A program made the position numbers and the translations under genes. This document shows positions 950 through 7,569 of a stretch of DNA of 64,000 bases, piece after piece. The notes below the pieces were generated by a model. That model saw only the letters and a list, made by a program, of their open reading frames with translations, ran no database searches and was not told where the DNA came from. This stretch comes from Fimbriimonas ginsengisoli Gsoil 348 (GTDB lineage Bacteria > Armatimonadota > Fimbriimonadia > Fimbriimonadales > Fimbriimonadaceae). Each line of letters begins with the position of its first letter. The stretch's first letter is position 1. The stretch is from positions 1-64,000 of the forward strand of contig CAMCVK010000009.1 in assembly GCA_945881865.1 (NCBI GenBank), in the 5' to 3' direction.

Positions 950-1927
950 ATGAAACAATGGCTGTTTCTGACGACCCTGATTCTTACCGCAGCCTTGAGC
1001 CCGGCCGCCGAGCCGTACCGGCCGGCGGACCCGAAGGCAACGAAGCAGGTTCGGGCCGTTCTCAATTTCCTTAAGCAACAGCAAGGAAAGGTGCTGATCA
1101 GCGGGCAAACCGACTTGAAGGACGCTAGGTGGATCGATGAAAACACCGGGCGGCTCCCCGTCATTTTGGCCCTTGATTTCATGCGAACCCCGGCAAGGAT
1201 GGGGCGGCAGGTCGCCGACACCGACACGGCCATCGACTGGTTCAAGAAGAAGGGCGGCATCGTTTCCTACCAGTGGCATTGGTCATCGCCGACCGGTGCC
1301 TCGGACCCGGAAAGTGGGTTCTACGCAAAGAGCACCACGTTTGACCTTCAAAAAGCCCTTCCAGATCCAAAGTCGCCGGAGTATCTGGGTTTGATCGCGG
1401 ACATTGACGACGTCGCGGTCGAACTCAAGCGCATGAACAAGGCCGGCGTGCCGATCATCTTTCGGCCGCTTCACGAGGCGCAGGGAACTTGGTTTTGGTG
1501 GGGTGCAAAGGGGCCGGAAGCCTGCCGCAAGCTCTACGATCTTCTGTTTGATCGGATGACAAAGCACCACCGCCTGCACAACATCATTTGGGCCTGGACG
1601 GCGTATCCGGATTCGCAGAATAAAGGGAAAGCGAAGGACTGGTACCCGGGCGATGACAAGGTCGACCTGGTGGTAAGCGACTACTGCGAGAAGAAGACTG
1701 AGTACGACGAGCTGGTTGCGCTGACCGGTGGCCGCAAAATGGTGGCGCTGTCCGAGACCATGAACGCCCCCGACCCGGACAAGGTGCTGACCGAAACCCC
1801 GTGGGCGTATTGGGTGACATGGGCTCGCCGCGACTGGAACTCGCGCAGTAACGACGATATGAAGCGGTCCATGGCGCATCCGAAGACGCTGACGCTCGAC
1901 AAGATGCCAAAGCGAGGAACAAGATGA
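950..1927 (+). CDS. Secreted GH26 endo-beta-mannanase-like glycoside hydrolase
   Basis: A 325-residue protein with a hydrophobic signal peptide (about residues 1-20, AAEP cleavage region) followed by a GH26 TIM-barrel. The acid/base Glu is E176 in FRPLHEAQGTWFWW and the nucleophile Glu is E269 in VALSETMN. Both sit in the usual family positions, and the SYQWHW segment (106-111) is also typical. GH26 enzymes mostly cleave beta-1,4-mannan, though some act on mixed-linkage glucan or xylan. It overlaps the following GH43 gene by ATGA, so the two are probably translated together and act on the same hemicellulose. There is no carbohydrate-binding module and the length is that of a bare catalytic domain. 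Confidence 0.9.
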   Translation: MKQWLFLTTLILTAALSPAAEPYRPADPKATKQVRAVLNFLKQQQGKVLISGQTDLKDARWIDENTGRLPVILALDFMRTPARMGRQVADTDTAIDWFKKKGGIVSYQWHWSSPTGASDPESGFYAKSTTFDLQKALPDPKSPEYLGLIADIDDVAVELKRMNKAGVPIIFRPLHEAQGTWFWWGAKGPEACRKLYDLLFDRMTKHHRLHNIIWAWTAYPDSQNKGKAKDWYPGDDKVDLVVSDYCEKKTEYDELVALTGGRKMVALSETMNAPDPDKVLTETPWAYWVTWARRDWNSRSNDDMKRSMAHPKTLTLDKMPKRGTR

Positions 1928-3594
1928 CTAGAACTTACTGCAATCCGATGGACCTGGACTACGGCTTTTGCCCGATCCCAAACTTCGTTACCTGTGGCAA
2001 GCATCGGGCGACGGCCGATCCGGCGATTGTGCGTTTTAGGGACGACTACTATCTATTCTCGACCAACCAGTGGGGCTACTGGTGGAGCACCGACCTCAGT
2101 GAGTGGACGTTCGTCCCGCGGCTTTTTCTGAAGCCGGACGCGAATGTTTTCGACGAGCTTTGCGCCCCGGCGATTTGGGTGATGGACGACGCCTTGTACG
2201 TCGTTGGCTCCACTTACACGAAGGAGTTCACGATCTGGCGCAGCCGAAACCCGAGGGTCGACGATTGGGAAGTCGCCTGCGAAAGCTTTGAAGGTGGAGC
2301 CTGGGACCCAGCATTCTTGCTGGACGACGATGGGCGGCTGTATCTCTACCATGGGTCAGGGAATGACAAGCCGCTCTACGGTCGTGAGATCGACCCCAAA
2401 ACCCTTCAGCCGCTGGGCGAGAACGTTCCGCTGGTGCACCTCGACCCCGAGAACCACGGATGGGAGCGATTTGGCGAGGCGAACGACAACACCTTTTTGC
2501 ATCCTTTCATGGAGGGTGCCTGGACCACGAAGCACGAGGGCCGCTACTACCTTCAGTACGGAGCACCGGCGACCGAGTTCTCGGGCTATGCCGACGGCGT
2601 CTACGTCGCGGATGCACCGCTGGGGCCATTTGTGTACCAGCGCCACAATCCGGTTTCGTACGTTCCGGGCGGGTTCGCCCGTGGTGCTGGGCACGGGGCG
2701 ACTTTCGTTGACCATGCTGACCGCTACTGGCACACCTCGACCATCGTGATTGGCGTCAAAAACAACTTCGAACGGCGAAATGGCCTTTGGCCGTGCGGGT
2801 TCGATGCCGAGGGCACCATGTGGTGCGATAGCGCGTATTCGGACTACCCGCGGGCTTTGCCAGCGACCGGCCACGGTGAATTAGCCGGTTGGATGTTGCT
2901 GAATTACGCCAAGCCGGTACGCGCCTCCAGCACGCTCGGCGGGTTTTCGGCCAACTTTGCGGTAGACGAAAACATCAAAACGTACTGGTCGGCCGAATCC
3001 GGCGGGCCGGATGAATGGTTCGAGTCGGACCTGGGTGCAGCTTCTACGGTGCACGCGATTCAGGTCAACTTTGCCGACCAAGACGCCGAGCTGATGGGGA
3101 AGGTACCGGGAATCTCGCAGGCGTACCGCGTGATGGGTTCGCTGGACGGCCAAACTTGGTTTCTCATCACGGAATCGGAAGGGCGAGACGCACCTCATGC
3201 CTACCATGAGTTGCCTGAGCCAGTCCGAGCGCGCTACGTTCGGATTGATGGAATTCGAGCGGCAACCGGCAAGGTTGCGCTTTCGGGTTTGCGAGTGTTC
3301 GGCCTCGGCGATGGGCTGCCGCCAAGGCAACCGGATCAGTTGGTGGTGCTACGCGGAGCTTCGGAGCCCCGAAACGCCTGGCTGAAATGGGCGGGGCAGG
3401 GCGATGCGACCGGCTATGTCATCCGCTCCGGCGTGGCGCCGGACAAGCTGTACCACTCGATGACCGTCTATACGGCTACGGAAGCGTGGTGGCGCGCCAT
3501 GACCCGCGACGAAACGTACTGGTTTACGCTGGAAGCGTTTAACGAAAACGGCATCTCGCCGCGAACCGCGCCGGTTGAATCGCCCGCACCGTAG
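1924..3594 (+). CDS. GH43-family glycosidase with F5/8 type C and fibronectin III domains
   Basis: A 556-residue protein starting in the ATGA overlap with the GH26 gene. Residues about 1-310 form a five-bladed propeller of the GH43 superfamily. The likely catalytic base is D32 (RATADPAI), D128 in AWDPAF is the probable pKa modulator, and E198 in FMEGAW is a candidate general acid. Residues about 325-460 resemble a discoidin/F5-8 type C (CBM32-like) domain (WSAESGGPDEW, RYVRIDGIR). Residues 470-550 resemble an fn3 domain ending ETYWFTLEAFNENG. No signal peptide is visible, although its partner is secreted. It may therefore act on oligosaccharides inside the cell, or the start may be misjudged. 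The exact activity (xylosidase, arabinofuranosidase or exo-mannan type) cannot be told from sequence. Confidence 0.85.
   Translation: MTRTYCNPMDLDYGFCPIPNFVTCGKHRATADPAIVRFRDDYYLFSTNQWGYWWSTDLSEWTFVPRLFLKPDANVFDELCAPAIWVMDDALYVVGSTYTKEFTIWRSRNPRVDDWEVACESFEGGAWDPAFLLDDDGRLYLYHGSGNDKPLYGREIDPKTLQPLGENVPLVHLDPENHGWERFGEANDNTFLHPFMEGAWTTKHEGRYYLQYGAPATEFSGYADGVYVADAPLGPFVYQRHNPVSYVPGGFARGAGHGATFVDHADRYWHTSTIVIGVKNNFERRNGLWPCGFDAEGTMWCDSAYSDYPRALPATGHGELAGWMLLNYAKPVRASSTLGGFSANFAVDENIKTYWSAESGGPDEWFESDLGAASTVHAIQVNFADQDAELMGKVPGISQAYRVMGSLDGQTWFLITESEGRDAPHAYHELPEPVRARYVRIDGIRAATGKVALSGLRVFGLGDGLPPRQPDQLVVLRGASEPRNAWLKWAGQGDATGYVIRSGVAPDKLYHSMTVYTATEAWWRAMTRDETYWFTLEAFNENGISPRTAPVESPAP
3511..3548 (+). 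repeat. Copy 1 of a 38-bp flank repeat (fn3 3' end of the GH43 gene)
   Basis: GAAACGTACTGG followed by a segment encoding TLEAF. A diverged copy occurs at 6409-6446, beyond the RHS island, with about 6-7 mismatches by eye. See the finding on island flanks. Confidence 0.5.
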
Positions 3595-3672
3595 CCTACG
3601 GTCGTACAAAGTTGGGACTAAAGATCGACCCGGCGATGGACGATACTTGTCACCGTATCGAGGTCACCGCAG

Positions 3673-4935
3673 ATGCTTACCCTTGAGGCTTGTCGCCCGA
3701 TACTCTCGCGTGCGAAATGCGACGCTCTGGGTCGGGTGAGCCGAAAGACGTTCTCGGCGGGGCAGTTGCTGACCGAGATCCGAACGGGTTATTCGGGTTC
3801 GTACACCTACGATGGCAACGGCAACCGCCTGACCCGCACCGTAGGCGGGGTGACCGAGACCTACGCCTACGACGACGGCGACAAGCTTCTGTCGGTTTCG
3901 GTGGGGGGTTCGGCAATTAAGAGCTACGGCTACGATGCGGCGGGGCGAACGACTTCGGTCGTTTCCTCGGCGGGAACTACGACGCTGGCGTACGACTTTG
4001 AGGGCCGCGCAACTTCGATCTCCGGGCCGGGCGTTTCGCAGAGCAACCTCTACAATGGCTTGGATACGCGAGTCGGTTCGACCACGAATTCGGTGGCGCG
4101 GACTTTCCTTCGCGACGGGGCATACGTCACCGACCCGGTTCTGTCCGACGGTGCGGCGACATACACGCCGGGCGTATCGGAGCGACGGGGTTCGGCAACG
4201 ACGTTCCTGCATAACGGCCTGAAGAACGCCGATGCGCAGAGCGGAACCGGGCAGACGGTGATCGCCGCGCGCCAGTACGATGCATTTGGCAACGTGGCTT
4301 CTTCTACCGGCACCTGGACCGGCCCCTTCGGCTACGCGGGCGGATTTGGCTACCAAGAAGACGCTACCGGGCTCAAGCTCCTGGGTCACCGCTACTACGA
4401 CAGCTCGACCGGCCGCTTCCTCACCCGCGACCCGATCAAGGACGGCCGAAACTGGTACGTCTACTGCGGCAACGATCCGGTCGGATTTGTTGACTCCGAC
4501 GGTCTGCAAATGCGGAGGCCGGGGCCACCGGCGCGGCCTCCAAGGGGAATCACGAAGTGGGTCATTGACTCTATTATCTCGCGGAGACCTCTCAAGCCAA
4601 ATCCAACACCAACTGTCAAGCCACCAACTCGGAAAGTACCTCCTATTCACCCGGGCAAACAGGGGAAGCATATTCCCGGTCACCGTAATTTCATCCCGGG
4701 TAAGAGCGAGATAACCACTGACCCCAAAAAATTAATCGAGGAAGGTGCGGGGCGTGGCGAGCCTGTTGGCGAGATCCCGCGGGGTAAGCCCGGTTTCAAG
4801 GAGAGATTTGACTTCGGTTACGTGATTGGGCAGCACGTAGATAGGGATAGCGGCAAAAAATCGCCCTCCACAGTTGGGATCATCGTGTACGATGGAAAAG
4901 GAGAGGTTCATGTCTACCCAGGGAAACCGAAGTAA
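3673..4935 (+). CDS. Truncated RHS-repeat protein with C-terminal polymorphic toxin type 50 domain
   Basis: 420 residues. Residues about 20-210 hold YD/RHS repeats (SYTYDGNGNRL, YGYDAAGR, AYDFEGRA). Residues 213-278 are the RHS-associated core, with HRYYDSSTGRFLTRDPI and the core end PVGFVDSDGL, close to the PxxxxDPxGL autocleavage motif but with Ser for the second Pro. A Pro-rich linker (about 283-327) leads to residues 328-420, which match the type-50 polymorphic toxin pattern: GKQGKHIPGH, a central RFDFGYVIG, and a final GIIVYDGKGEVHV. This domain is predicted to be a nuclease. Full RHS proteins are far longer and carry export regions; here an in-frame TAA at 3619-3621 precedes the ORF. 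It is thus an orphan tip without its own secretion part, perhaps kept for recombination onto a full RHS gene. Confidence 0.85.
   Translation: MLTLEACRPILSRAKCDALGRVSRKTFSAGQLLTEIRTGYSGSYTYDGNGNRLTRTVGGVTETYAYDDGDKLLSVSVGGSAIKSYGYDAAGRTTSVVSSAGTTTLAYDFEGRATSISGPGVSQSNLYNGLDTRVGSTTNSVARTFLRDGAYVTDPVLSDGAATYTPGVSERRGSATTFLHNGLKNADAQSGTGQTVIAARQYDAFGNVASSTGTWTGPFGYAGGFGYQEDATGLKLLGHRYYDSSTGRFLTRDPIKDGRNWYVYCGNDPVGFVDSDGLQMRRPGPPARPPRGITKWVIDSIISRRPLKPNPTPTVKPPTRKVPPIHPGKQGKHIPGHRNFIPGKSEITTDPKKLIEEGAGRGEPVGEIPRGKPGFKERFDFGYVIGQHVDRDSGKKSPSTVGIIVYDGKGEVHVYPGKPK
4156..4305 (+). repeat. RHS core segment, copy 1 of a ~150-bp direct repeat
   Basis: Encodes TYTPGVSERRGS through QYDAFGNVAS inside the RHS gene. 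A second copy lies at 5193-5342. By eye the two differ at about 18 positions, mostly silent, so both were once coding and under selection. Confidence 0.85.
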
Positions 4936-5191
4936 CGACGAAATTTTAGCAGCGCTCCCGGCGTCGATCAAGTGGGCGGTGCTTCCGCAGGAAGATTACG
5001 AGTTTCTAGACCGGGTGGAGATCATTGAAGCGACGTCAGAGCTGATTCATCTCAGGTTTTTCGTTAAGCGGCCGTTGAACGAAGAGGAAACAATCTTGGT
5101 TTATGACGCTGGAGGCGAAGTCATCGCGGACTTCACCGATTGCAAAATGATTCGAGAGGAAATCGTTGTGATTGGTCAACCCGTAAAGTAA
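4910..5191 (+). CDS. Putative immunity protein for the type-50 RHS toxin
   Basis: 93 residues, acidic, starting at ATG 4910 with a good Shine-Dalgarno (GGAGAGG at 4900-4906). It overlaps the 3' end of the toxin gene by 26 bases. Position, strand, small size and lower GC than the flanks are what is expected of a cognate immunity gene. The sequence (LPQEDYEFLDRVEIIE, then alternating strand-like stretches) has no membrane segment and no family I can name. The function is inferred from context only. Confidence 0.75.
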   Translation: MSTQGNRSNDEILAALPASIKWAVLPQEDYEFLDRVEIIEATSELIHLRFFVKRPLNEEETILVYDAGGEVIADFTDCKMIREEIVVIGQPVK

Positions 5192-5192
5192 C

Positions 5193-5342
5193 GCGACCTA
5201 CACGCCGGGCGTTTCGGAGCGGCGTGGTTCAGCGACGACGTTCCTGCATAGCGGCCTCAAGAACGCCGACGCGCAAAGCGGAACCGGACAGACGGTGGTG
5301 GCTTCGCGCCAGTACGAGGCATTTGGCAACGTAGCCAATTCC
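5193..5342 (+). repeat. RHS core segment, copy 2 of a ~150-bp direct repeat
   Basis: Partner of 4156-4305; homology ends abruptly at about 5342, where the decayed toxin tail begins. Confidence 0.85.
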
Positions 5343-5351
5343 AGAGGATAA
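5193..5351 (+). pseudogene. Displaced RHS core fragment (second tip)
   Basis: Begins right after the immunity stop codon (5189-5191). Reads TYTPGVSERRGS to QYEAFGNVAN in one frame, then meets TAA at 5349-5351. It is a diverged copy of 4156-4305 and has no start codon or upstream RHS sequence. It breaks off about 70 residues before the core end seen in copy 1. This is a remnant of an older RHS tip left behind when a newer tip replaced it, or a recombination donor. Confidence 0.8.
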
Positions 5352-5427
5352 TCACTGGAAGACAGAGATCAAGGCGTTCATGAAGAATGTCTGTAAAGAG
5401 CTAAAAAATGAACATCGAATGGTTTAA
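5335..5427 (+). pseudogene. Decayed C-terminal tail of a second RHS toxin
   Basis: In a frame shifted by +1 from the RHS fragment, 5335-5427 reads about 30 codons including EDNHWKTEIKAFMKN and ends at TAA 5425-5427, 20 bases inside the next small gene. The same toxin-end/immunity-start overlap is seen in the intact pair upstream (26 bases). I infer that most of a second toxin has been deleted, fusing mid-core to its last residues out of frame. The toxin family cannot be named from so short a tail. Confidence 0.5.
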
Positions 5428-5662
5428 AGCTAACCTCGAAGAGGCCATCGAAGCACTCCAAAGCATTTTGGAATCTCCGGAAGAGGCGCTGGAATCTCCA
5501 TCGATTTCTTTGGCACATGCTTACTACCATCTAAATGCCGCCTATCGGGGGGCTCACTATGAAGGAGACGCATTTGAGGCTGGTGGCTCGGGTGATGACT
5601 TCCCCTTCCGCTACTTCCCGACCGATCTCCCAGAGATTTATGGAAGTTGGACAAAAGAATAG
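5408..5662 (+). CDS. Putative orphan immunity protein of the second RHS tip
   Basis: 84 residues starting at ATG 5408. The start is preceded by AAAGAGCTAAAAA, a weak ribosome site. Strongly acidic and helix-rich at the N-terminus (FKANLEEAIEALQSILESPEEAL), with a Tyr/Phe-rich end (DDFPFRYFPTDLPEIYGSW). No known family is recognised. It follows the decayed toxin tail with a 20-base overlap, as an immunity gene would, and being intact while its toxin is dead fits retention for protection against kin. Function is inferred. Confidence 0.65.
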   Translation: MNIEWFKANLEEAIEALQSILESPEEALESPSISLAHAYYHLNAAYRGAHYEGDAFEAGGSGDDFPFRYFPTDLPEIYGSWTKE

Positions 5663-5855
5663 CTCTGTCTGGTCCCAAAGGTGTGCCTTCGACGCTTCGA
5701 GTGATAGCGCCTTGGCGAAAACTAAGGGGGTCGCCAAGGCGTGCCCAGATCTCACTACCACGAGATCAAAGGCAAGGCGGGCCAAGGGGACTCGACAAAG
5801 GTCAGGACCTAGATTGGCTGACCATCGTAGTTTTCATAAAGGAGATGAGCGATAA
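5663..5855 (+). other. Degenerate spacer with an 11-bp hairpin, possibly a third toxin remnant
   Basis: No convincing gene. A perfect inverted repeat (CGCCTTGGCGA 5708-5718, TCGCCAAGGCG 5731-5741, 12-base loop) could form a hairpin but has no T-run. One frame running to a TGA at 5857-5859 overlaps the next gene start by ATGA, as a toxin tail would; another frame contains SHYHEIKGKAG. Neither is long enough to call a toxin. Confidence 0.3.
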
Positions 5856-6359
5856 ATGACCCGTACGGCGACGCTGCGTGGCCGGTTGGATTACGACGGG
5901 CCGGAGGCGCCCCTTCGCATCACGCTGGTCGGAAGGCGGCTGCGTTCCCCTAAGGTTCAGATCACGATCCCAAGGCCAGAGGAGAGCCTCGTGACCGAGT
6001 GGAAGGCCAACGCCTTCGACTCCCTCCCGGCGCTGCGGAAGCTGGCGAGGACGGCTCTTGCCGTCCAGCAGTGGCGCAGCGCAAAGATCGAAATCCACGG
6101 GATCGAAGGGCTGGAACGGCTGCCCGTCAGCATCGACTACGCGATCGATTGCGGCTCCTTCTCCTTCCGCGCGGAGAGGACGCTCCCGTCCTTGCTGTTC
6201 AGCTTGACGAACTACCAGGAGTCCGGACTCGCTGAGATTCTGTTCCTCTACACAGAAGCCGATGCGGTGGAAGAGTTCGGGCGTTCGTTGGATGAAGCGC
6301 TCAGGGATTGGGGGGACTGGGACGAGCCGAAGCCGAAGTCGGCGGGACGAGGAAGCTAG
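5856..6359 (+). CDS. Hypothetical protein, third immunity-like gene of the RHS locus
   Basis: 167 residues; ATG 5856 with AAGGAG at 5838-5843. Pattern: N-terminal beta-rich part (TRTATLRGRLDYDG, PLRITLVGRR), a middle helix (SLPALRKLARTAL), and an acidic Trp-rich end (DWGDWDEPKPKS). There are no membrane segments or catalytic motifs. It sits third in a row of RHS-associated small genes on the same strand. I cannot name a family, so immunity is inferred from position alone. GC is higher than in the two preceding immunity candidates. Confidence 0.55.
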   Translation: MTRTATLRGRLDYDGPEAPLRITLVGRRLRSPKVQITIPRPEESLVTEWKANAFDSLPALRKLARTALAVQQWRSAKIEIHGIEGLERLPVSIDYAIDCGSFSFRAERTLPSLLFSLTNYQESGLAEILFLYTEADAVEEFGRSLDEALRDWGDWDEPKPKSAGRGS

Positions 6360-6408
6360 GTATGTGCGCCGCGTCCGGAGCCCCTAGGGCGGCGCCAGGA
6401 AGGGCCCG

Positions 6409-6446
6409 GAAACGTACTGGATTACGCTCGAAGCGTTCGCCGTAAA
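6409..6446 (+). repeat. Copy 2 of the 38-bp flank repeat (fn3-like remnant)
   Basis: Would encode ETYWITLEAFAVNK, the same fn3 end as at 3511-3548, but with no ORF around it. It marks the right side of the RHS island. Confidence 0.5.
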
Positions 6447-6480
6447 CAAAAAAGCCCTCCCAGATATTCTCCGGGAGGGC
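6447..6480 (-). terminator. Rho-independent terminator of the pseudopilin gene
   Basis: On the minus strand GCCCTCCC and GGGAGGGC (6480-6473 and 6461-6454) form an 8-bp GC stem with an 11-base loop, followed by TTTTTTG. It lies 16 bases past the stop of the pseudopilin gene. Confidence 0.9.
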
Positions 6481-6495
6481 GACGGGAACTGCCGA

Positions 6496-7437
6496 TTACT
6501 GCTTCAGACCGGCTTTGTACGGGTCCCAGGCCGAGTTCGTCGGGTTGTTGATGAGGTCATCAATCACGCGAACGTAGTTCTGGGATTTGGCGTGCGTGTC
6601 GGCGAAGACCACGTTTACCTGGCCGCCCATAACCTTCTTGCCCTTGTCCTCGATGGCACCCACGATGCTGGCCGTGTTGCCGTAGAAGGAGCCCGGAGCG
6701 ACGCCCGTTTGGTTGTAGCTGAGGCCGTAGTTGATGTACTTCCAGTAGTTGTAGTAGTACTTCAGGGTGTCGGCGTAGGTTGCCGGAACGTTCGGGTTCA
6801 TGCCGCTGGCGTCGCCGTTGAGCAGACCATCGATTGCCGGGGAGCCGTCCGGTCGGGTGTAGCGGGGAAGCACGTTGTAGTAGCGTGCGTTCATCATCAG
6901 GTAGGTGTTCGCCGATTCTGCGACCGCACCTGCGCTCAGGCCAACCGCTCGCTCTGCGCTGGAAAGCGAAGCACCGGCCGGGAACACGTAGTTGTTCACG
7001 CCGTAGCTGTTCTGGCCGCCGTAGCTGCAGCCGTCGCCCGCGTCCTGGTTGTCGTCGTTTCCGACGGCCGGGTCACAGGTCGTGTTTGCCGTAACCCAAG
7101 CGCTCGGGTTGATCGGGCTCTTCCACATGTCGAGGCTCTTCACGTACGGGTGAACGATCTGGTGGAAGAACGTTCGCCCGGCCGAGTTTCCGGTGATGTA
7201 CGGGCTGGGCAGGCCCGGGTTCGGCGTGTTTCGGGTTCGGTAGGGCGGCAACGTGTCGTCGTTGTCGCCAAGGTAGATCTGCAGGCCGGTTCCAATCTGC
7301 TTCTGGTTCGAGAGGTCCGCCGTCTTCTTGGCGGCCAGCTTGGCCTGGGCGAAGACAGGGAACAGAATGGCGGCAAGAATCGCGATGATCGCGATCACAA
7401 CAAGCAACTCAATGAGGGTGAAGGCTTTCTTGTTCAC
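6496..7437 (-). CDS. Type II secretion / prepilin-type pseudopilin (N-methylation domain)
   Basis: 313 residues from GTG 7437. This start gives the short leader NKKA and cleavage before F of [12 protein letters not shown], as prepilin peptidase needs; an upstream ATG at 7527 would add 30 residues and is less likely. Hydrophobic helix at about 5-27, then the FPVFAQAK segment and a large extracellular domain with Gly/Asn/Tyr-rich stretches and the end motif [11 protein letters not shown], typical of Armatimonadota and Planctomycetota DUF1559-like pseudopilins. Role: minor pilin-like or secretion-associated surface protein. It is monocistronic, with its own terminator. Three paralogues lie at 17337, 35776 and 36672. 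Confidence 0.85.
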
Positions 7438-7569
7438 CGAGCCAGTTTGATGGTTCCGCGTTAAGTGATGTTTAAGCTTTTCGCCGAACGGGATAATTGT
7501 TGGGAGATCGGCTATTTTGGCGTACACGTTTTATGGGCTTAAAGACTTAGCTTTCGCCTCGTGCGCGAT

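What the first reader, a model, noticed from the sequence alone, without database searches (positions are those of the whole stretch)
3595..6446. Orphan RHS tip island with a type-50 toxin, three immunity-like genes and remains of an older tip
3673-4935 is a short RHS C-terminal piece without export domains, ending in a type-50 polymorphic toxin domain that overlaps its immunity gene. Behind it lies a second copy of part of the same RHS core, a decayed toxin end and a second small gene, then a third. The array records tip displacement: new toxin-immunity tips pushed in ahead of old ones. Full RHS proteins are known to vary this way, but the organism-specific toxin, the retained immunity genes and a missing parent RHS gene deserve attention.
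Basis: partly seen in the sequence, partly recalled or inferred. Interest (0 to 1): 0.75.

Follow-up and report, generated by a model that had tools for sequence, protein, structure and literature searches.

The report
Orphan RHS toxin tip with immunity
A stray toxin end with its probable antidote gene, followed by the ruins of an older pair, sits in a little-studied bacterium in which no complete gene of this toxin family could be found; such stray ends are well known elsewhere, but the antidote family and an altered toxin active site are worth a bench test.

Summary
The island at 3595-6447 is real and is an orphan RHS tip array, a well-known kind of structure. ORF 3673-4935 is an RHS core fragment (TIGR03696, E 5.5e-19) ending in an Ntox50 RNase domain (PF15542, E 4.3e-18). 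It overlaps by 26 bases a 93-aa gene, imm1. Imm1 is the cognate immunity gene on good genomic evidence: of 291 genomes of the phylum, Ntox50 occurs in 2, and imm1 relatives (E up to 0.01) in the same 2, adjacent in both. Distantly similar genes follow Ntox50 in Actinopolymorpha and Caballeronia. No Pfam or NCBIfam model covers imm1. A second core fragment follows (88% over 143 bases; mostly silent differences), then a probable toxin tail and an 84-aa gene, as tip displacement predicts. The 167-aa third gene has no immunity evidence. No full-length RHS gene was found: the 10 RHS cores detected, at four loci of this 98%-complete draft, lie in frames of 263-486 aa. The toxin has valine for one of three histidines shown to be essential in two relatives, coupled to a tyrosine at a nearby site; it may be dead or re-wired. 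Known kind, new member.

The parts
3673..4935 (+). Orphan RHS tip: RHS core fragment plus Ntox50 toxin, 420 aa, no other family matched over cut-off
   Evidence: TIGR03696 E 5.5e-19; PF15542 E 4.3e-18; 84% aa identity over residues 29-280 to a 1285-aa RHS frame in another genome of the family (G054)
4276..4506 (+). RHS-associated core end (delimits the tip)
   Evidence: TIGR03696 match, 76 of 76 positions
4645..4920 (+). Ntox50 toxin domain
   Evidence: PF15542 70 bits at genome level; sequence match to solved MafB2 8hhj E 1.4e-9 and YxiD 9v8i E 3.8e-5
4910..5191 (+). imm1: probable cognate immunity gene of the Ntox50 tip, 93 aa
   Evidence: 26-base overlap with the toxin; strong Shine-Dalgarno-like site; found in the same 2 of 291 genomes as the toxin, adjacent in both; distantly similar genes behind Ntox50 in other phyla
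5193..5335 (+). Second, truncated RHS core fragment of an older tip
   Evidence: 88% identity over 143 nt to 4156-4298; 14 of 17 differences at third codon positions
5344..5427 (+). Probable last 27 codons of the older toxin (remnant; inferred)
   Evidence: Frame translation; overlaps the next start by 20 bases, much as in the first pair; no convincing match
5408..5662 (+). 84-aa gene, possible retained immunity gene of the older tip
   Evidence: Position. Relatives in G035 (E 1.8e-14) and G003 (E 9.6e-6), a third at E 0.008 in G043 not seen again; no RHS core in the stretches read around them; weak Shine-Dalgarno-like site
5856..6359 (+). 167-aa gene of unknown function; immunity role not supported
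   Evidence: No family over cut-off; weak matches in 2 of 291 genomes besides its own; strong Shine-Dalgarno-like site
3511..3539 (+). Left copy of a flank repeat, inside the 3' end of the GH43 gene 1924-3594
   Evidence: 93% identity over 29 bases with 6409-6437; E 3.5e-4 in the genome
6409..6437 (+). Right copy of the flank repeat: fragment resembling the GH43 3' end, behind the island
   Evidence: As above; 77% over 56 nt

Best explanation
The island is an orphan RHS tip array left by tip displacement, now apparently stranded without a full-length RHS gene. The front module (3673-5191) is an RHS core fragment fused to an Ntox50 domain, an RNase A-like/BECR-fold ribonuclease that in relatives cuts RNA or tRNA, followed by its own immunity gene imm1. 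Behind it lies an older module whose core was cut short and whose toxin was lost down to a probable tail, while its small downstream gene was kept. Without RHS body or export parts the toxin is not expected to leave the cell by itself. The likeliest present use is protection, by the retained immunity genes, against kin or neighbours that carry the matching toxin. Shown here: domains, overlaps, the imm1-Ntox50 pairing in two genomes, the mode of core divergence, and the lack of a detectable parent. Inferred: immunity function, order of events, present use.
For: Toxin and core matches. Pairing: PF15542 in 2 of 291 genomes of the phylum (E up to 0.001) and imm1 in the same 2 of 291 (E up to 0.01), adjacent in both. 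Distantly similar genes directly behind Ntox50 in Actinopolymorpha (two loci) and Caballeronia; profile comparison E 6.8e-5, probability 64%, 37 columns. Kept immunity with lost toxin elsewhere: two imm1 paralogues (66%, 60%) on contig C5, with 25 bases of toxin-end similarity before the first, and a Rhizobium plasmid with a 22-aa frame resembling the end of Ntox50 (profile 74-92, E 0.098, under cut-off) before an imm relative. Core copies differ mostly silently. Tandem tips in relatives, some behind frames over 1200 aa; in G057 the Ntox50 pair is followed by a further core that breaks off. Parent not found: 10 TIGR03696 sites, frames 263-486 aa; five RHS bodies matched none of 48 contig-end stretches.
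Against: No functional data. The older toxin tail and the 84-aa immunity role rest on position; relatives of the 84-aa gene are not next to RHS cores in the stretches read. The genome is a 26-contig draft, so a collapsed or unassembled parent cannot be excluded; the last 2 kb of C25 was not read. Direct similarity of imm1 to the other phyla's genes is weak: identities 14-20% in the alignment, L036 E 0.045 over 31 residues, no hit in the plasmid records even at E 1 although the Caballeronia record is among them. One of the two further plasmid relatives opened, Paraburkholderia, has no Ntox50 gene directly before it but an Imm33-like gene. The Actinopolymorpha and Caballeronia toxins showed no RHS match. 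The structure model of imm1 was poor (pLDDT 54.7).
Confidence: 0.85

Rival explanations
1. The whole island is a decaying relic with no present function; the toxin is catalytically dead and the immunity genes are on the way out.
For: Second module truncated; valine at a histidine that alanine tests found essential in MafB2 and YxiD; parent not found.
Against: The toxin and imm1 frames are open, imm1 keeps a strong start site, and two further imm1 paralogues persist elsewhere. The valine comes with tyrosine at a second site also in a Bacillus-order member with an open 461-aa frame.
Confidence: 0.25
2. The first pair is an intracellular toxin-antitoxin-like module: the orphan toxin is translated from its own start and acts inside the cell, restrained by imm1, as proposed for RHS elements in Salmonella.
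For: The ORF has its own ATG with a moderate Shine-Dalgarno-like site (-6.6 kcal/mol, among the strongest 8% of 830 ATGs) and imm1 a strong one. PMC7043789 (search listing and start of abstract only) reports such a role in Salmonella.
Against: No promoter-like site on the + strand between 3400 and 5322 by simple consensus. One histidine essential in relatives is missing. In E. coli EC93 the orphan CDI toxin does not appear to be made (PMC3150448, passages).
Confidence: 0.12
3. The array is a silent cassette store that re-arms a full-length RHS gene by recombination through the shared core.
For: Cores give homology; exchange of this kind is described for CDI/Rhs (PMC3150448, passages).
Against: No full-length RHS was found in this genome, and the other own cores are only 29-42% identical in protein, too far for ordinary homologous recombination (recalled). 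It could still serve after gene transfer.
Confidence: 0.08

Closest known systems
Orphan cdiA-CT/cdiI and rhs-CT/rhsI modules (Poole et al. 2011, PMC3150448)
   Same: Core or marker fragment, variable toxin end, immunity gene directly behind, arrays of such modules, remnants lacking export parts
   Different: There they are described downstream of full-length genes; here no parent was found in the held genome
Sequential effector displacement with retained immunity genes in Vibrio T6SS clusters (PMC5361080)
   Same: New pair in front, old effector lost, old immunity gene kept
   Different: RHS core fragments mark the steps here; a T6SS was not looked for
Ntox50 toxins MafB2-CT/MafI2 (8hhj, PMC9970974) and YxiD/YxxD (9v8i, PMC12700104)
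   Same: Ntox50 domain with detectable sequence similarity, immunity gene downstream
   Different: The window toxin has V in place of a His essential there, and Y in the neighbouring motif; the imm1-family profile found no significant PDB chain (best E 0.7; that the copy holds the MafI2 and YxxD chains is assumed)

Membership tests
Ntox50 (PF15542) | Profile match over the curated cut-off | tested here: met
   66.3 bits against a cut-off of 22.2, 92 of 92 positions
Ntox50 (PF15542) | Three active-site histidines (MafB2 H335/H402/H409; YxiD H447/H521/H528) | tested here: not met
   Window has H, V, H; 5 of 16 aligned domains lack the middle His. This lowers the claim of identical chemistry, not family membership by profile
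Ntox50 (PF15542) | RNase activity | not testable with these tools
   No bench data
Orphan rhs-CT/rhsI module | RHS core fragment joined to a variable tip without the RHS body | tested here: met
   437-aa open frame; match to the 1285-aa frame begins at residue 29 of 420
Orphan rhs-CT/rhsI module | Cognate immunity gene immediately downstream | tested here: met
   By genome pairing only; neutralisation itself not testable
Orphan rhs-CT/rhsI module | Full-length parent RHS upstream or elsewhere in the genome (usual, not obligatory) | tested here: not met
   10 core sites, frames of 263-486 aa; no RHS body at the contig ends read. Draft genome
Full-length RHS polymorphic toxin | Frame of about 1000 aa or more | tested here: not met
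   437-aa open frame
Known immunity families | Match of imm1 to a Pfam or NCBIfam immunity model | tested here: not met
   No match at E up to 5 for imm1

The most novel reading that the evidence does not exclude
A bacterium that has lost its full-length RHS genes but keeps ten RHS tips at four loci, plus separate immunity genes, as an intracellular immunity or regulation store; its Ntox50 tip is an alternative, still active RNase in which the catalytic role of the lost histidine has moved to the tyrosine of an HxYP motif, and imm1 belongs to an undescribed immunity family that pairs with a branch of Ntox50 in several phyla.
Probability: 0.15. Interest if true: 0.55.

Novelty: new member of a known kind. 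Interest (0 to 1): 0.34.

Why it matters
If right, imm1 gives a new immunity family for Ntox50 toxins besides the Bacillus and Neisseria partners already solved; the relatives seen are unannotated or called hypothetical. The paired V/Y replacement poses a clear question for RNase A-like toxins: can the acid of the reaction move between neighbouring side chains? A genome with only orphan tips would also be a natural case for asking what immunity genes do when the weapon is gone.

Tried and rejected
Parent RHS elsewhere in the genome: not found as far as the draft allows. Third gene as immunity: no support. Tail peptides before the 84-aa and 167-aa genes: no convincing matches in 187 loci. Structure of imm1 from a two-sequence alignment: pLDDT 54.7, not used further. 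Viral contigs for the Actinopolymorpha toxin domain: none confirmed. Imm1 in plasmid records directly: no match; plasmid relatives were reached only through the Caballeronia gene. Empty-site comparison: the GH43 gene has clear relatives in 9 other genomes (57-74% over the aligned pieces), but no GH26 or ribosomal L5 neighbour in the held stretches, so the insertion could not be dated; the flank repeat stays unexplained. My first thought, that the missing histidine proves a dead toxin, was dropped when a Bacillus-order member with an open 461-aa frame showed the same V and Y. Eight own tips on C10 and C12 gave no Pfam match at E 0.01, and the first G057 tip only a sub-threshold RHS repeat. A blastn of the first core stretch alone against L027 printed nothing, although a longer alignment covers it at 74%; not relied on. 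Rows dropped before the 16-domain count: four broken pieces in G334 and G386, the Paenibacillus hit, whose genome has no Pfam match, and three Clostridioides plasmid hits.
Full report
What is there. The window is the first 64 kb of contig 9 of a 3.23-Mb, 26-contig genome of 98% completeness. The best named hits of the core search are Chthonomonadaceae, Fimbriimonadaceae and other Armatimonadota records. Between a GH26/GH43 pair of genes (950-3594) and a reversed prepilin-like gene (6496-7527; so named from its N-terminus, from recall) lies the island. ORF 3673-4935 has an RHS core and a full Ntox50 domain. Its G+C drops from 63% in the core to 55% in the tip and 50% in the next gene, as is usual for RHS tips (recalled). 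The next gene, imm1 (4910-5191), overlaps it by 26 bases. Right behind imm1 the sequence returns to RHS core (5193-5335; 88% to 4156-4298), breaks off, and after a 27-residue tail in another frame reaches an 84-aa gene (5408-5662). A 167-aa gene (5856-6359) follows.

The toxin. The domain matches solved Ntox50 structures by sequence: MafB2 (8hhj, E 1.4e-9) and YxiD (9v8i, E 3.8e-5). Papers: PMC9970974, section 13 and passages, reports that H335A, H402A and H409A each remove toxicity and that V411A does not; PMC12700104, section 23 and passages, reports loss of activity for alanine at H447, H521 and H528; PMC3482391, passages only, predicts the BECR fold and lists no immunity family for Ntox50. 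In an alignment of 16 Ntox50 domains the first His is kept in 16 of 16, the middle His in 11 of 16, the last His in 13 of 16. The window has H-V-H, with HVYP where most have HIVP. The only two sequences with V at the middle site, the window and G473 (Bacillus order), are also the only two with Y at the V411 site. PMC9970974 notes that this site in CdiA-CT Ykris is a tyrosine (Y278), which with T276 stands in for a catalytic histidine of RNase A. So the toxin may be dead, or its acid may have moved. The 16 sequences are a convenience sample, some of them near-duplicates; rows left out are listed under Tried and rejected.

The immunity gene. Imm1 has no Pfam or NCBIfam match. Across 291 genomes of the phylum, PF15542 occurs in 2 (own and G057; E up to 0.001) and imm1 in the same 2 (E up to 0.01); in G057 the relative (32% over residues 16-81, E 0.0021) also overlaps the toxin's end. 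The gene directly behind Ntox50 in Actinopolymorpha alba (two loci) and Caballeronia sp. NK8 looks alike by eye, but identities to imm1 are only 14-20%. Comparing the two groups as profiles gave E 6.8e-5, probability 64%, over 37 columns; a direct tblastn finds the first Actinopolymorpha gene at E 0.045 and nothing in the plasmid records. The link is fair, not certain. The Actinopolymorpha and Caballeronia toxins were not shown to be RHS-borne. From the Caballeronia gene, 8 plasmid records were reached, itself included. Of the other seven I opened two. The Rhizobium leguminosarum one has a 22-aa frame before the immunity relative that resembles the last 19 positions of the Ntox50 profile (E 0.098, under cut-off). 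The Paraburkholderia phymatum one lies in a two-partner-secretion locus (hemagglutinin-repeat gene, ShlB-type transporter) behind a gene with an Imm33-like domain, with no Ntox50 gene directly before it. The Ntox50 genes of the Bacillus order have other small neighbours, judged by eye. The own genome has two more imm1 copies (66% and 60%) on contig C5, where the DNA similarity of the first begins 25 bases before imm1's start, in the toxin's last codons; they sit among small unknown genes, one with a sub-threshold Imm11 match, without an RHS core in the 14 kb read.

Displacement. The two core copies differ at 17 of 143 bases, 14 of them third positions; 12 changed codons are silent and 4 are not. 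They thus seem to have diverged as working coding sequence before the second was broken, which fits the arrival of a new tip with its own core better than a local duplication followed by decay. Tandem short RHS tips, some behind a frame of 1200 aa or more, occur in several held Armatimonadota loci, and 77 of 85 genomes of the family (own included) have RHS relatives. PMC3150448 (passages) and PMC5361080 (passages) describe orphan modules and sequential displacement with kept immunity genes; the original RHS displacement paper (Jackson et al. 2009) I know from recall and a cut reference-list line only.

Missing parent. In the own genome TIGR03696 is found at 10 sites at four loci: the window (1), C12 (3), C10 (5), C11 (1); the open frames are 263-486 aa. 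By protein search the other own cores are 29-42% identical, apart from the window's own second copy. In one search's truncated listing I count 36 of 85 genomes with a frame of 1000 aa or more, so the lack here stands out. The bodies of five RHS frames of 1249-1442 aa, searched against 48 contig-end stretches, the window and three own stretches, matched only the window and the C10 and C12 stretches. The last 2 kb of C25 was not read, and collapse of repeats in assembly remains possible.

Flanks. A 29-base piece of the GH43 3' end recurs behind the island (93%, E 3.5e-4 in the genome), 77% over 56 nt. GH43 ends of relatives differ more, judged by eye and blastn. The island may have come in at, or duplicated, the gene's end; the event cannot be dated with the held loci.

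Start sites. Shine-Dalgarno pairing is strong before imm1 and the 167-aa gene (top 2% of 830 ATGs), moderate before the toxin (top 8%) and weak before the 84-aa gene. The only + strand promoter-like site in 3400-6600 lies at 5323-5352, before the 84-aa gene; such matches are weak evidence.

Verdict. An orphan RHS-Ntox50 tip with its probable cognate immunity gene and the remains of an older module: a known kind. New here are the imm1 family, the coupled active-site replacement and the lack of any detected full-length RHS gene. A search for papers holding Armatimonadetes, Rhs and toxin gave none (one spelling of the phylum, open-licence library only).

Noticed in passing
L017 (G000:C10:68056-74348): Five short RHS tips in tandem, 1.2-1.5 kb apart, with very similar core starts and different ends, each overlapped or closely followed by a different small gene; no Pfam match at E 0.01 in the five.
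   Followed up: partly
L016 (G000:C12:1684-5276): Three short RHS tips in tandem on the minus strand, cores 36-39% identical to the window core, no Pfam match at E 0.01.
   Followed up: partly
L018 (G000:C5:49039-52696): Cluster of small unknown genes with two imm1 paralogues, a duplicated 172-aa gene and a gene with a sub-threshold Imm11 match (E 0.00073): looks like an immunity-gene store without toxins.
   Followed up: partly
L209 (G000:C11:14145-14384): A tenth RHS core, alone in a 336-aa frame.
   Followed up: no
L188 (Rhizobium leguminosarum pRlBT01c, 2918-3294): A 22-aa annotated CDS resembles the bare tail of an Ntox50 domain (E 0.098), directly before an imm1-like gene annotated as hypothetical.
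   Followed up: partly
L187 (Caballeronia sp. NK8 pNK81, 2260-3584): A 342-aa frame with Ntox50 (E 1.5e-29), not in the collection's gene table, and a distantly imm1-like gene behind it.
   Followed up: partly
window 3511-3539 and 6409-6437: A piece of the GH43 3' end recurs behind the island; origin unexplained.
   Followed up: partly
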